Shown here: positions 2,442 to 39,026 of the stretch, piece after piece
Layout of the letters: each line of letters begins with the position of its first letter
Position numbering within the stretch: position 1 is the stretch's first letter
Source: Treponema sp.
GTDB lineage: Bacteria > Spirochaetota > Spirochaetia > Treponematales > Treponemataceae
DNA: 39,026 nucleotides
Assembly: GCA_024690865.1 (NCBI GenBank)
Contig: JAILON010000144.1
Location: 1 to 39,026, forward strand
Reading direction: 5' to 3'
Made by a program: the position numbers and the translations under genes
The notes under the pieces: model-generated
Databases searched by the model: none
What the model saw: only the letters and a program-made list of their open reading frames with translations
What the model was told of the DNA's origin: nothing

Positions 2442-2513
2442 AGGTCGATGTGGGACTCGAACCCACGTTGACAGGATGAAAACCTGTTGTGCTGACCCTT
2501 GCACTAATCGACC
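2442..2513 (-). tRNA. tRNA-Glu (anticodon TTC)
   Basis: Read on the minus strand, the acceptor arms GGTCGAT and ATCGACC pair over 7 bp. The D-stem is GTGC/GCAC. The anticodon arm is ACAGG - TTTTCAT - CCTGT with TTC at positions 34-36. The T-arm is GTGGG - TTCGAGT - CCCAC. About 71 nt plus a U discriminator; CCA is not encoded. Part of a four-gene minus-strand cluster. The 3' side of the anticodon arm and variable loop shares 14 nt with the CRISPR repeat. Confidence 0.88.
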
Positions 2514-2519
2514 GGAAAA

Positions 2520-2593
2520 GTGGACGTACCAGATTCGAACTGGTGAAATCCTGATCCACAGTCAGGCGCGTTAACCTCTCCGCCAACGACCAC
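2520..2593 (-). tRNA. tRNA-His (anticodon GTG)
   Basis: The minus-strand fold has an 8-bp acceptor with the extra G(-1):C73 pair typical of tRNA-His (GTGGTCGT against ACGTCCAC), with one T-T mismatch. The anticodon arm is CCTGA - CTGTGGA - TCAGG (GTG). The T-arm is ACCAG - TTCGAAT - CTGGT. CCA is not encoded. It lies 6 nt upstream (in transcription order) of tRNA-Glu. Confidence 0.85.
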
Positions 2594-2600
2594 ATAAAGA

Positions 2601-2764
2601 GAATCTGATGGGCCTCGAACCAACGATGCCACTTTTGGAAATGGTCGAAATTCATCTGCGAGGACCACAATTGCACGAAGTGTGATGAGGTCCTCGTGTG
2701 TCAGTGCAAAAGTAACCGACTTTTGCACTGACACAGGTGTCTTAACCATCTTGGCTACAGATTC
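2601..2764 (-). ncRNA. oversized tRNA-like gene with two inserted hairpins
   Basis: The ends look like one tRNA: acceptor strands GAATCTG (5') and CAGATTC (3') pair perfectly, a D-arm-like stretch GCCAAGATGGTTAAGAC follows the 5' strand, and a T-arm-like GTTGG - TTCGAGG - CCCAT (one mismatch) precedes the 3' strand. Between them are about 125 nt in place of an anticodon arm and variable loop. They contain two abutting hairpins: 2697-2735 with perfect 17-bp arms and a 5-nt loop, and 2659-2696 with perfect 8-bp arms. No convincing anticodon can be assigned. It may be a tRNA gene interrupted by a palindromic element, a decayed tRNA, or a stable structured RNA. It sits between genuine tRNA-Trp and tRNA-His genes. 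Confidence 0.55.
2697..2735. repeat. dispersed palindromic element, copy A
   Basis: A perfect inverted repeat: 17-bp arms (2697-2713 and 2719-2735) around the loop AACCG. Its core, AGTGCAAAAGT - AACCG - ACTTTTGCACT, recurs with two base changes at 23604-23630, so this is a repeated element and not a one-off hairpin. Neither copy has a U-run, so neither looks like a terminator. Confidence 0.75.
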
Positions 2765-2766
2765 TA

Positions 2767-2839
2767 CACACGCAGGAGGATTCGAACCTCCGACCGGCAG
2801 TTTTGGAGACTGCTGCTCTGCCAGCTGAGTTATGCGTGT
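2767..2839 (-). tRNA. tRNA-Trp (anticodon CCA)
   Basis: The minus-strand acceptor ACACGCA/TGCGTGT pairs over 7 bp, the D-stem is CTC/GAG-like, and the anticodon arm is GCAGT - CTCCAAA - ACTGC (CCA). The T-arm is GGAGG - TTCGAAT - CCTCC, with discriminator G. CCA is not encoded at the 3' end. First gene of the tRNA cluster in transcription order. Confidence 0.9.
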
Positions 2840-35965: not shown

Positions 35966-36661
35966 CGAGAATGTTGACAGGATGAATTAATCAGTTATAA
36001 TCTTCGGCTGTCTCAGCTGGGCTTCCAGCTGGTTGCAGGTTGACAGGATGAATTAATCAGTTATAATTTGTACCAATGTTGGTACACCGTTTTCCCTGTT
36101 GCAGGTTGACAGGATGAATTAATCAGTTATAATCATGAGTAAATCACCAACAACTAAATCCTTGTTGCAGGTTGACAGGATGAATTAATCAGTTATAATC
36201 AACTCATAGTCATTAAGGTCAACATTCTGGTTGCAGGTTGACAGGATGAATTAATCAGTTATAATTTTAGTACCTTCAATCCTAGAATCAAGCGTGTTGC
36301 AGGTTGACAGGATGAATTAATCAGTTATAATTCAGCCTCCGAAGAAGGAACATCAGAAAAGGTTGCAGGTTGACAGGATGAATTAATCAGTTATAATAGC
36401 CACCAATAAAGTAAGGCTTAGTCAGCCGTTGCAGGTTGACAGGATGAATTAATCAGTTATAATTCTCCTGGTTTTGTTAATATTCCTAAAATTGTTGCAG
36501 GTTGACAGGATGAATTAATCAGTTATAATGGGAAAGACCTTGCGTATACATCGCATCTGGTTGCAGGTTGACAGGATGAATTAATCAGTTATAATGTCCT
36601 TCTCAAGGTCCTCCTTCTTCTGCTGGTTGCAGGTTGACAGGATGAATTAATCAGTTATAAT
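35966..36661 (+). CRISPR. CRISPR array, 11 repeats, 10 spacers
   Basis: Repeats of 36 bp at an exact 66-bp period, starting 35966, 36032, 36098, 36164, 36230, 36296, 36362, 36428, 36494, 36560 and 36626; every spacer is 30 bp. Ten repeats are identical. The first (35966-36001) differs only in its first eight bases. The repeat begins GTTGCAGG and ends CAGTTATAAT, the polarity of type II-C repeats, so crRNAs should run left to right, convergent with the cas genes. Within each repeat TTGACA (positions 9-14) and TATAAT (31-36) are separated by 16 bp. Spacers show no match elsewhere in the window by eye. Confidence 0.97.
35974..36001 (+). promoter_or_regulatory. repeat-embedded sigma-70 promoter (first of 11)
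   Basis: TTGACA - 16 bp - TATAAT, both boxes perfect, at positions 9-36 of the repeat. Identical promoters occur in each of the other ten repeats. Transcription would start about 7 nt into the following spacer, leaving about 23-24 nt of guide, the length used by type II-C crRNAs. Confidence 0.7.
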
Positions 36662-36663
36662 AT

Positions 36664-36720
36664 GTCCGATGCATTTCTTTTCCAGACAAGGGATTGAAGT
36701 GCGTCGGACGTATTATTTTT
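36664..36720 (+). terminator. terminator at the 3' end of the CRISPR array
   Basis: GTCCGATGCA (36664-36673) pairs with TGCGTCGGAC (36700-36709, one G-T), followed on the plus strand by GTATTATTTTT. The T-rich tail exists only on the plus strand, so it would stop array transcripts before they enter cas2 antisense. The loop is long (26 nt). Confidence 0.55.
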
Positions 36721-36729
36721 GGGCAAAAA

Positions 36730-37065
36730 TCAGAACAAAAGGAGCTGTTCCTGCCGTTTTTTGGGTGTTTTCTCTGCGGCCGTGTAACTGATGATGTTCT
36801 CATACTGCTTGTCCGTTATCGTGATTATATCCACTTTCCCCTCGGAAGGCAAGTTCCTGCCGATGAGCTTGTAATACTTCTCGCAGGCATCCTTGCCGGA
36901 GAAGAGCTTGGTGTAGATGGAGTACTGCACCATGGAGAAACCGTTGTCCAGCAAAAAGTTGCGGAAATCCGTCGCCGCCTTCCTTTCCGCTTTCTCGACT
37001 ACGGGCAAATCGAACAGAACCAGCATCCACATAAGCTCATACCTGTTCAGCTCCGGCATCGCCAT
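36730..37065 (-). CDS. cas2: CRISPR-associated endonuclease Cas2 (type II)
   Basis: A 111-residue subunit of the Cas1-Cas2 spacer-integration complex. It has a ferredoxin-like fold with the first strand WMLVLFDLPV carrying the conserved Asp. FLLDNGFSMVQYSIYTKLF is the typical Cas2 helix-strand, and KVDIITITDKQYENI the C-terminal strand. The start at 37065 has GGGAGG 9 nt upstream; ATGs at 37071 and 37059 are alternatives. It overlaps the end of cas1 by 29 nt. Last cas gene before the array; no csn2 or cas4 follows, which points to subtype II-C. Confidence 0.9.
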   Translation of the reverse strand: MAMPELNRYELMWMLVLFDLPVVEKAERKAATDFRNFLLDNGFSMVQYSIYTKLFSGKDACEKYYKLIGRNLPSEGKVDIITITDKQYENIISYTAAEKTPKKRQEQLLLF

Positions 37066-37963
37066 CCTCATTTCCCTCCCATTCAGGCAAATCAATGACA
37101 GCTTTCCCATCTTCCAATGCGTGCACATAGGAAGCGACAAGATACTGCATGCTCTGAAAAGCAGGGGAGTCCCCCTGCGAAGTATGCAGCTTTATCCACA
37201 AAGCGTCCGTAAGCTTCGCCTTATGCTCCCGGCCCAGCTCCGCCTTTTCAGGCAAGCCCATGCTGAACACAAGGCTGTCCACCATAGGCCGGTAAATCTC
37301 AAAGAGGTCGTCCGCGAGCGCGAACTGGTTCAGGTGGTTGTCGTGGTGGATTCCCAATGCGGGAAGCAGGCCGCCGGAGCACACGGCCCGCGCCATGGAT
37401 CCTCGCATGACCGCGTATCCGTAGTTCAGGAAAGAGTTGATGCCCGGCAGGTTCCTGTCGCGGACAAAATCCTTGCCGAACAAGGCCTTCCAGTACATCC
37501 GGGCGGCGTAAGCCTCCCTGTTGTCCGGGTCGCCGGATTTTACCATCGTTGCTATCTTGTCTATGAGGACGGATTCCTTCTCCATGCCACAAAGCCGCAG
37601 CGCAAGGGCCTGGTTCCTGATTTTCCTTACGACGACCTGCTGCCAAATCCGTTTTCTGAATGGTACGGAGGCTTCTATCTGGCTTTTGATGACTTTGGCG
37701 AAAAGATAATGGCTGTAGACAGGCAGGACCATTCCCTGAGGGGCATAGTTCTTTCCGCAGAGCACCGTGACCCCGCCTTTTTCGGCAATGGCGTTCAAAA
37801 GGTTCTTGGAAACAGTCACTCCTTGGGCCGAAAGCAGCAGCACCCCGATGTCGTCAAGGGGCACCCTGCCCAGCTCCTCCGCCCCGTGCCGGATGACGGC
37901 GAAGCCTCGGCTGAGAGACAGACAGCGGTTTTCTTCCTGAATCTCCAGAACCCTGTTCAGCAT
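37037..37963 (-). CDS. cas1: CRISPR-associated integrase Cas1 (type II)
   Basis: A 308-residue metal-dependent integrase that inserts spacers with Cas2. N-terminal beta domain (CLSLSRGFAVIRHGAEELG, then the strand DDIGVLLLSAQGVTVS). The helical catalytic domain has the conserved Glu in NREAYAARMYWKALFG, the His in LPALGIHHDN and the acidic pair in FALADDLFEIYRP. Length fits type II Cas1. The ATG at 37963 is chosen because the cas9 frame ends at 37999 and no good site exists between; its ribosome-binding site is weak (GAAAG). Follows cas9 after 35 nt. Confidence 0.92.
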   Translation of the reverse strand: MLNRVLEIQEENRCLSLSRGFAVIRHGAEELGRVPLDDIGVLLLSAQGVTVSKNLLNAIAEKGGVTVLCGKNYAPQGMVLPVYSHYLFAKVIKSQIEASVPFRKRIWQQVVVRKIRNQALALRLCGMEKESVLIDKIATMVKSGDPDNREAYAARMYWKALFGKDFVRDRNLPGINSFLNYGYAVMRGSMARAVCSGGLLPALGIHHDNHLNQFALADDLFEIYRPMVDSLVFSMGLPEKAELGREHKAKLTDALWIKLHTSQGDSPAFQSMQYLVASYVHALEDGKAVIDLPEWEGNEDGDAGAEQV

Positions 37964-37998
37964 ACTTTCATTATCGGTATACAGAACAGGGTATAAGC

Positions 37999-39026
37999 TT
38001 ATTTTCTGAAAACCCTGCCTATCGGGTTCACCGTGATGAAGCGGGCCTGCTTCTCGCCGAAGAGGACGTTGACGGAAATCCAGTTCTGAGTTTTTTGAAG
38101 CTTCCAGCAAGGTTCTATTTGATATTCATTCGTTGCGATTATCCAATCAGCACAGTTTGTAACCGAAAAGATAGGTCGAACATCAAGTTTGTTGTTCGTT
38201 GCGGCGAACCCCGCCACCCTGCACTTGTACCAGGCTCCCTTGTCGCTGAACTCCAGGTAGTCGTTCTTGTGCAGGATTCCGATTTTCTTGGCCGCCGGGT
38301 GCGGGGCCTTTGATACACCATCCTTGGGCTTGTTGTCCCTGCCGACCTCGTCCCTGCGGATATACTGGGCCTGATACGTCGGCTTTGCCCCCGCTTTCTT
38401 CGGCGGAACTTCCCATATTATCGCCGCAAAGTAATCCTCCGGGGCAAGGTATCGGGGAGTACTGCCGTTTATGACGATGGGTGTCTGCACGCGGTTCAGG
38501 CAGCGGACTTTCTTTATTCCCGTCTCTTCGCTGAATGCCTGAAGGATATCCTCGAACTTCCCGCCCTTGTGGGAGTCGGCGAAGCTTTGCAGGCGGGAAC
38601 GGATCTTGGCATCCACGATGTCACCGATGTTCTTCTCGGAAAGGCTCGTTATGGGACCCCGGGCGACAAAGTACTCCCGGTAGAGCTTCACCTGCGGGTA
38701 GATGTCCTTGAGTGCCTTTCGGACAAGCTTGATGTCCTTCGTTCCTGCCAGTTCGCGCTCAAAGTCCGCGCGGACTTTCTCATGCTTGATGAGGGGAATG
38801 TCCTTCTCCTCAAGTCTGGCGATATCTACGGCCTCTTCCCGCTTGATTTTCCCCAGGAGCGTCTCCTTGGAAAGCTTGCCTTCCGCCCCGTGGTCTGGCT
38901 TGAAGCTGACGACGATGTGACGCACCTTCTCCTGCAGTTCCATGCGCGGAACAGCCATGGGAGGCACTTCTATCCTGTTTTTCTGGGACCGGGCGTTGAG
39001 CGTCGAAATCTCCCGTACCAGCGACG
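37999..39026 (-). CDS. cas9: Cas9, C-terminal part (cut by window edge)
   Basis: About 342 residues from the end of a Cas9 RNA-guided DNA endonuclease; the frame is open to the window edge. MELQEKVRHIVVSFKPDHG followed by GKLSKETLLGKIK matches the segment after RuvC-III in compact Cas9 proteins (in NmeCas9-type enzymes: a VSR/VSF-x-P-x(2) motif and a GxxHxET-like loop). The remainder (about 200 residues, with VRCLNRVQTPIVINGS, FAAIIWEVPP and WYKCRVAGFAATNN) is the wedge and PAM-interacting region. RuvC-I, the HNH domain and the bridge helix are outside. Gene order cas9-cas1-cas2-array without csn2 suggests subtype II-C. The tracrRNA is not in the window. Confidence 0.88.
   Translation of the reverse strand, partial: SLVREISTLNARSQKNRIEVPPMAVPRMELQEKVRHIVVSFKPDHGAEGKLSKETLLGKIKREEAVDIARLEEKDIPLIKHEKVRADFERELAGTKDIKLVRKALKDIYPQVKLYREYFVARGPITSLSEKNIGDIVDAKIRSRLQSFADSHKGGKFEDILQAFSEETGIKKVRCLNRVQTPIVINGSTPRYLAPEDYFAAIIWEVPPKKAGAKPTYQAQYIRRDEVGRDNKPKDGVSKAPHPAAKKIGILHKNDYLEFSDKGAWYKCRVAGFAATNNKLDVRPIFSVTNCADWIIATNEYQIEPCWKLQKTQNWISVNVLFGEKQARFITVNPIGRVFRK

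What the first reader, a model, noticed from the sequence alone, without database searches (positions are those of the whole stretch)
35966..36661. Every CRISPR repeat is a perfect consensus sigma-70 promoter
In the sequence: the 36-bp repeat holds TTGACA at positions 9-14 and TATAAT at 31-36, 16 bp apart, so all 11 repeats point a full-consensus promoter into the next spacer. Known: in Neisseria meningitidis and Campylobacter type II-C loci a promoter element in the repeat (mainly an extended -10) makes individual crRNAs without RNase III. Inference: here the repeat has evolved both boxes to consensus. Initiation about 7 nt into a 30-nt spacer leaves about 23-24 nt of guide. Eleven strong tandem promoters with identical sequence would be an extreme case, and new spacers would be expressed at once wherever they are inserted.
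Basis: partly seen in the sequence, partly recalled or inferred. Interest (0 to 1): 0.78.

Follow-up and report, generated by a model that had tools for sequence, protein, structure and literature searches.

The report
CRISPR repeats that double as promoters
Every repeat of this bacterial CRISPR array carries a textbook start signal for making RNA, so each stored virus fragment can be read out on its own; that trick is known in this CRISPR subtype, but here the repeat has both halves of the signal and the array ends in a matching stop signal, and the same repeat design recurs in at least four bacterial phyla.

Summary
Eleven 36-nt repeats (35966-36661) each hold TTGACA-N16-TATAAT, at repeat positions 9-14 and 31-36. 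They are 11 of only 16 exact copies in the 3.85-Mb genome; the reversed pattern occurs 0 times. The locus is type II-C (cas9-cas1-cas2, array convergent). Repeat-borne promoters are known for II-C, but described as a -10 or extended -10 at the repeat's 3' end; I found no paper describing a -35.

A survey of 102 II-C loci found through cas1, not repeats, shows the design is not unique. TTGACN-N16-TATAAT at the same positions occurs in Treponema, Alphaproteobacteria and Deferribacterota; pattern-found arrays add Planctomycetota. The sixth -35 base varies, and TTG at 9-11 is widespread, so the box was built on an older crRNA:tracrRNA segment. After correction for the Cas1 tree and G+C, -35 quality rises with -10 quality and falls where an extended -10 (TG) exists: promoter-like compensation. 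A hairpin with T-run follows the last repeat, supported by covariation in relatives and pointing with the promoters. The oldest repeat has lost its 5' end but keeps both boxes. No RNA data were available. Verdict: new variant of a known kind.

The parts
35966..36001 (+). Repeat 1: oldest or 'extra' repeat, first 7 nt degenerate; -35 at 35974-35979 and -10 at 35996-36001 intact
36032..36661 (+). Repeats 2-11, identical, 66-bp period; -35 hexamers start at 35974+66n, -10 hexamers at 35996+66n
36002..36625 (+). Span of the ten 30-nt spacers, interleaved with repeats 2-10; expected start near spacer nt 7 (inference from the -10 position)
   Evidence: start site inferred
36660..36720 (+). Intrinsic-terminator-like hairpin directly after the last repeat, 18-bp outer stem then a T-rich run (TATTTTT), pointing rightward (-33.2 kcal/mol, z -8.3); covaries in relatives
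36730..37140 (-). cas2, convergent with the repeat promoters
   Evidence: TIGR01573
37037..38110 (-). cas1 of type II (the true start is probably inside the listed ORF)
   Evidence: TIGR03639
37999..39026 (-). cas9, C-terminal part; the contig ends inside the gene. The N-terminal part and tracrRNA are on contig C63 of the same genome bin (L009)

Best explanation
This is a type II-C CRISPR array in which each repeat is a sigma-70 promoter. RNA polymerase binds TTGACA-N16-TATAAT in a repeat and starts about 7 nt into the following spacer. It makes a crRNA with about 24 nt of guide followed by the next repeat. A tracrRNA from its own TTGACA-N17-TATAGT promoter pairs with repeat positions 4-30; RNase III probably makes the 3' cut. 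Polymerases that run on stop at the hairpin terminator after the last repeat, before the convergent cas2. The -10 box is the general II-C element. The -35 box lies in an older crRNA:tracrRNA segment that, in this group of II-C systems, appears to have been co-opted as a -35; it replaces or adds to the extended -10 of the Neisseria/Campylobacter type. Shown: anatomy, recurrence, covariation, statistics. Inferred: initiation, start position, processing, termination in the cell.
For: Both boxes in all 11 repeats. The genome has 15 exact TTGACA-N17-TATAAT sites and 5 N16 sites outside the array against 0 reversed controls; one lies just upstream of a tRNA-Val gene, so this sigma-70 consensus looks used here. 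tracrRNA with a near-consensus promoter in this bin, and TTGACA-type tracrRNA promoters in most Treponema relatives where a tracrRNA was found. Same box positions in Treponema, Alphaproteobacteria, Deferribacterota and Thermoguttaceae although much of the rest differs. Contrasts over 102 cas1-found loci: -35 match rises with -10 match (t about 3.1, permutation p 0.002) and falls with extended -10 TG (t about -3.4, p 0.001), also without the close Treponema clade. In several Alphaproteobacteria the first two -35 bases fall in an internal loop of the crRNA:tracrRNA duplex yet stay TT. Oldest repeats are mutated at 28% of bases in positions 1-8 but 1.9% in the -10. Array-end hairpin: 9 of 12 pairs with changes on both sides, 0/500 shuffles as good. 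II-C repeat promoters are experimentally established elsewhere (PMC3656092; PMC12080349).
Against: No RNA data. TTG at 9-11 is conserved even where the -10 is weak or displaced (TTGATT...TGTAAAATAAT), so crRNA:tracrRNA or Cas9 contact explains part of the -35 match. In degenerate oldest repeats the TTGAC is kept in only 15 of 27, and the -35 is not spared more than its neighbours 15-20. No purine preference at spacer nt 7 among 694 spacers. The TTGAC+TATAAT combination changed only about 4 times on the Cas1 tree, so there are few independent events. The regression was chosen after looking at the data.
Confidence: 0.7

Rival explanations
1. The repeat is a II-C promoter through its -10 box alone. 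The TTGACA is a by-product of the repeat segment that pairs with tracrRNA and contacts Cas9; it happens to lie 16 bp upstream and adds little.
For: TTG at 9-11 occurs across a broad II-C group including repeats with weak -10 boxes. The segment pairs fully with tracrRNA in Treponema. The oldest repeat does not protect -35 bases beyond the 5'-to-3' gradient. The sixth base is free.
Against: Phylogenetically corrected coupling of -35 with -10 and compensation with the TG element. T9 T10 kept in a tracrRNA internal loop in several Alphaproteobacteria. A perfect 12/12 at a workable spacing.
Confidence: 0.22
2. The array is transcribed from one promoter outside it into a long precursor, and the boxes are irrelevant.
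For: tracrRNA pairing over 27 nt would support ordinary RNase III processing.
Against: No promoter-like + strand site found between 34000 and the first repeat. II-C arrays elsewhere are transcribed from repeats (PMC3656092, PMC12080349). The -10 of the oldest repeat, which has no handle function, is kept in 25 of 27 degenerate copies.
Confidence: 0.04
3. The conserved 3' end (TATAAT) is an integration signal for Cas1-Cas2 next to the leader, not a promoter.
For: New spacers enter at the last repeat in II-C (PMC12080349), so the repeat's 3' end adjoins the leader.
Against: The oldest repeat, far from the integration site, keeps TATAAT while losing its 5' end. The -10 covaries with the -35 and TG elements. 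Not exclusive: both functions could apply.
Confidence: 0.04

Closest known systems
Campylobacter jejuni type II-C CRISPR with individual crRNA promoters (PMC3656092)
   Same: cas9-cas1-cas2, a start site for each crRNA, -10 box in the 3' part of the upstream repeat
   Different: C. jejuni repeat GTTTTAGTCCCTTTTTAAATTTCTTTATGGTAAAAT (PMC4607530) has an extended -10 and no -35 box; its sigma-70 promoters generally lack a clear -35
Neisseria-type II-C CRISPR (repeat of N. lactamica given in PMC4607530; N. meningitidis initiation within each repeat as cited in PMC7038990)
   Same: Promoter in each repeat, array convergent with cas genes
   Different: Repeat GTTGTAGCTCCCTTTCTCATTTCGCAGTGCTACAAT has extended -10 TGCTACAAT and TCCCTT where this repeat has TTGACA
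Clostridium cellulolyticum H10 type II-C (PMC7038990)
   Same: Array transcribed against the cas genes; last nine repeat nt resemble an extended -10; crRNAs with 23-26 nt of spacer
   Different: A -35 in the repeat is not described in the passages read
Treponema II-C relatives, e.g. T. socranskii and T. lecithinolyticum
   Same: Same repeat family GTTGCAGGTTGACN...TTATAAT, terminator after the last repeat in loci of the same clade
   Different: Sixth -35 base usually C or T instead of A

Membership tests
Type II-C CRISPR-Cas | cas9, cas1 and cas2 with no csn2 or cas4 | tested here: met
   cas2 TIGR01573, cas1 TIGR03639, Cas9 TIGR01865 (559 bits for the N-terminal part on C63); no csn2 or cas4 gene seen between cas9 and the array or next to the tracrRNA. 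cas9 is split over two contigs
Type II-C CRISPR-Cas | Array convergent with cas genes, sigma-70 -10 at the repeat 3' end | tested here: met
   compared with PMC4607530
Type II-C CRISPR-Cas | tracrRNA with anti-repeat near cas9 | tested here: met
   L009 2766-2792, 27 paired positions with two G-U; on contig C63, possibly from a sister strain
Type II-C CRISPR-Cas | Oldest repeat at the promoter-proximal end mutated in its 5' part | tested here: met
   repeat 1 differs in its first 7 nt only; PMC12080349
Repeat-promoter crRNA biogenesis | Primary transcript 5' ends inside spacers | not testable with these tools
   no RNA data; promoter sequence and conservation only
Repeat-promoter crRNA biogenesis | RNase III dispensable (N. 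meningitidis form) | not testable with these tools
   needs a mutant; a long tracrRNA duplex is retained
Extended -10 repeat promoter (Neisseria/Campylobacter type) | TGN before the -10 hexamer | tested here: not met
   AGTTATAAT in this repeat; TG is present in many other II-C repeats

The most novel reading that the evidence does not exclude
II-C repeats come in interchangeable promoter architectures: extended -10 only, -35 plus -10, or all three. The -35 was co-opted from the tracrRNA-pairing segment and trades off with the TG element. In the -35/-10 group the array is a self-contained bank of tandem transcription units closed by its own terminator, at the very end where new spacers are added, so the newest spacer sits in the most transcripts.
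Probability: 0.45. Interest if true: 0.6.

Novelty: new variant of a known kind. Interest (0 to 1): 0.45.

Why it matters
It turns a remark about II-C repeats ('they end in a -10 box') into a testable rule: the promoter in the repeat has alternative parts that compensate, and one part must also pair with tracrRNA. That is an unusual case of a DNA promoter element and an RNA-guide handle sharing the same bases. It also predicts which II-C arrays could express crRNAs without extra parts in a new host, and that arrays with strong repeat promoters carry an array-end terminator.

Tried and rejected
Uniqueness of the perfect promoter array: rejected, since the pattern scan and the cas1-based survey find the layout in several phyla. 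Phage records similar to the array: none. Purine preference at the expected start in spacers: none. Special protection of the -35 in oldest repeats: not seen. Terminator coupled to strong repeat promoters: clear in raw counts (31/34 versus 25/68, Fisher p 7e-8) but only t about 2 after tree correction, so left as suggestive.

Full report
What is there. The repeat GTTGCAGGTTGACAGGATGAATTAATCAGTTATAAT occurs 11 times with a 66-bp period between 35966 and 36661. TTGACA is at repeat positions 9-14, TATAAT at 31-36, gap 16 bp, in every copy. Repeat 1 has CGAGAAT in place of GTTGCAG, but both boxes are intact. Ten promoters face a spacer; the eleventh faces a hairpin. In the 3.85-Mb genome the exact string occurs 16 times, 11 of them here, and the reversed control 0 times. 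The 17-bp version occurs 15 times against 0, and one of those sites lies directly upstream of a tRNA-Val gene. So exact sigma-70 consensus sites appear to be used in this organism, and the array holds most of the 16-bp ones.

The locus. cas2 (36730-37140), cas1 (37037-38110) and the C-terminal part of cas9 (from 37999 to the contig end) lie to the right on the - strand, so the repeat promoters point toward cas2. The N-terminal 880 or so residues of Cas9 are on contig C63, overlapping slightly divergent sequence, which suggests strain mixture in the genome bin. Upstream of cas9 on C63 is a tracrRNA gene: promoter TTGACA-N17-TATAGT, then an anti-repeat that pairs with repeat positions 4-30 (25 Watson-Crick, two G-U), then further hairpins ending in a terminator-like hairpin with a T-run. 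This is a type II-C system.

What is known. PMC3656092 shows individual crRNA start sites in C. jejuni with a -10 box in the upstream repeat, and RNase III for the remaining cut. PMC4607530 reports gnTAnaaT at the 3' end of II-C repeats and convergence with cas genes. PMC7038990 notes an extended -10 in C. cellulolyticum repeats. PMC12080349 states that in II-C each repeat has a promoter, that spacers are acquired at the last repeat, and that the first (oldest, extra) repeat is mutated mainly in its first 15 nt and needs to keep its promoter. Full-text searches found no paper describing a -35 in a II-C repeat; the library is open-access only, so this is not proof of absence.

Not unique. A pattern scan of 84,980 species genomes for two neighbouring TTGACN-N16-TATAAT units gave arrays in Treponema, rumen Alphaproteobacteria, Rhodospirillales, Micavibrio, Mucispirillum and other Deferribacteraceae, and Thermoguttaceae. 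They have 36-nt repeats with the boxes at the same positions although much of the rest of the repeat differs. Because that scan selects on the motif, I also collected loci through cas1 alone in Spirochaetota, Alphaproteobacteria, Deferribacterota and Planctomycetota. Of 102 loci kept for the tree, 34 have both boxes at 5 or more of 6, 16 have the -10 with TG but a weak -35, and the rest are weaker in one or both. TTG at 9-11 is widespread in a large II-C group, including repeats with poor -10 boxes, so the -35 was not built from nothing. The sixth base is A here and in a few relatives, C or T in most.

Is the -35 used? Two lines for, two against. (1) For: over 102 loci, independent contrasts on a Cas1 tree with G+C controlled give a positive link of -35 match with -10 match (t about 3.1; permutation p 0.002) and a negative link with the extended -10 TG (t about -3.4; p 0.001). 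Both stay significant without the close Treponema clade (t about 2.6 and -3.2). This is the pattern expected of promoter elements that compensate. It was found after looking, on one tree. (2) For: in several Alphaproteobacteria the first two -35 bases fall in an internal loop of the crRNA:tracrRNA duplex yet remain TT, whereas in Treponema they are paired; pairing alone therefore does not explain them. (3) Against: in degenerate oldest repeats, found by whole-length identity, the -10 is intact in 25 of 27 but TTGAC in only 15 of 27, with per-base mutation of 28% (1-8), 12% (9-14), 6% (15-30) and 1.9% (31-36). The -10 is clearly held; the -35 follows a 5'-to-3' gradient. (4) Against: repeats with a displaced -10 still carry TTGATT. 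I conclude that the -10 is a promoter element with high confidence, and that the -35 probably contributes.

Array end. Immediately after the last repeat a long hairpin followed by a T-rich run points rightward (-33.2 kcal/mol, z -8.3). In 15 loci of the same clade its outer helix keeps 95.6% of pairs with 9 of 12 pairs changed on both sides, 0 of 500 shuffles as good, and an almost invariant T-run. Terminator-like structures follow the last repeat in 31 of 34 loci with both boxes and in 25 of 68 others, against about 7% in shuffles, but the link with promoter strength is only marginal after tree correction. It would stop array transcripts before cas2. Its position at the spacer-insertion end means every new spacer is inserted just upstream of it (inference, using the insertion end given in PMC12080349).

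Mechanism proposed. Each repeat starts a transcript about 7 nt into the next spacer (guide 24 nt), tracrRNA pairs with the next repeat, RNase III probably trims, and read-through stops at the hairpin. Because read-through from upstream repeats accumulates, the newest spacer, next to the terminator, would lie in the most transcripts. Initiation and termination are inferred; no RNA data exist here. Starts 66 bp apart are close to a polymerase footprint (general knowledge), so neighbouring promoters may interfere.

Assessment. The phenomenon is known for II-C; the two-box form, its compensation with the TG element and the covarying array-end terminator are what appears new here.

Noticed in passing
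window 37999-39026 and L009 (G000:C63) 1-400: cas9 is split over two contigs whose overlapping ends differ at several residues, suggesting strain mixture in this genome bin; the tracrRNA read here may belong to a sister strain.
   Followed up: partly
window 36660-36720: Hairpin plus T-run abutting the last repeat at the spacer-insertion end, with strong covariation in relatives; downstream terminators of II-C arrays did not turn up in the papers searched.
   Followed up: yes
window 36068-36097 (spacer 2) and 36002-36031 (spacer 1): Spacer 2 contains a perfect inverted repeat (TGTACCAA-TG-TTGGTACA) and spacer 1 a hairpin-forming CAGCTGG...CCAGCTG; folded guides might be poor guides.
   Followed up: no
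window 37037-38110: The listed cas1 ORF probably starts about 45 residues too early and overlaps the cas9 end; matches of distant relatives begin near residue 44-50.
   Followed up: no
G000:C54:44357-45148: A second, non-type-II cas1 in the same genome bin, so another CRISPR-Cas system is probably present.
   Followed up: no
L036-L038, L394, L398, L400: A related Treponema group has repeats with the -10-like motif shifted 3 nt (TGTAAAATAGC or TGTATAATAGC); some of these loci (e.g. L036, L400) lack the array-end terminator. How those arrays are transcribed is open.
   Followed up: no
window 2442-2839: Cluster of three tRNA genes on the - strand (Rfam).
   Followed up: no
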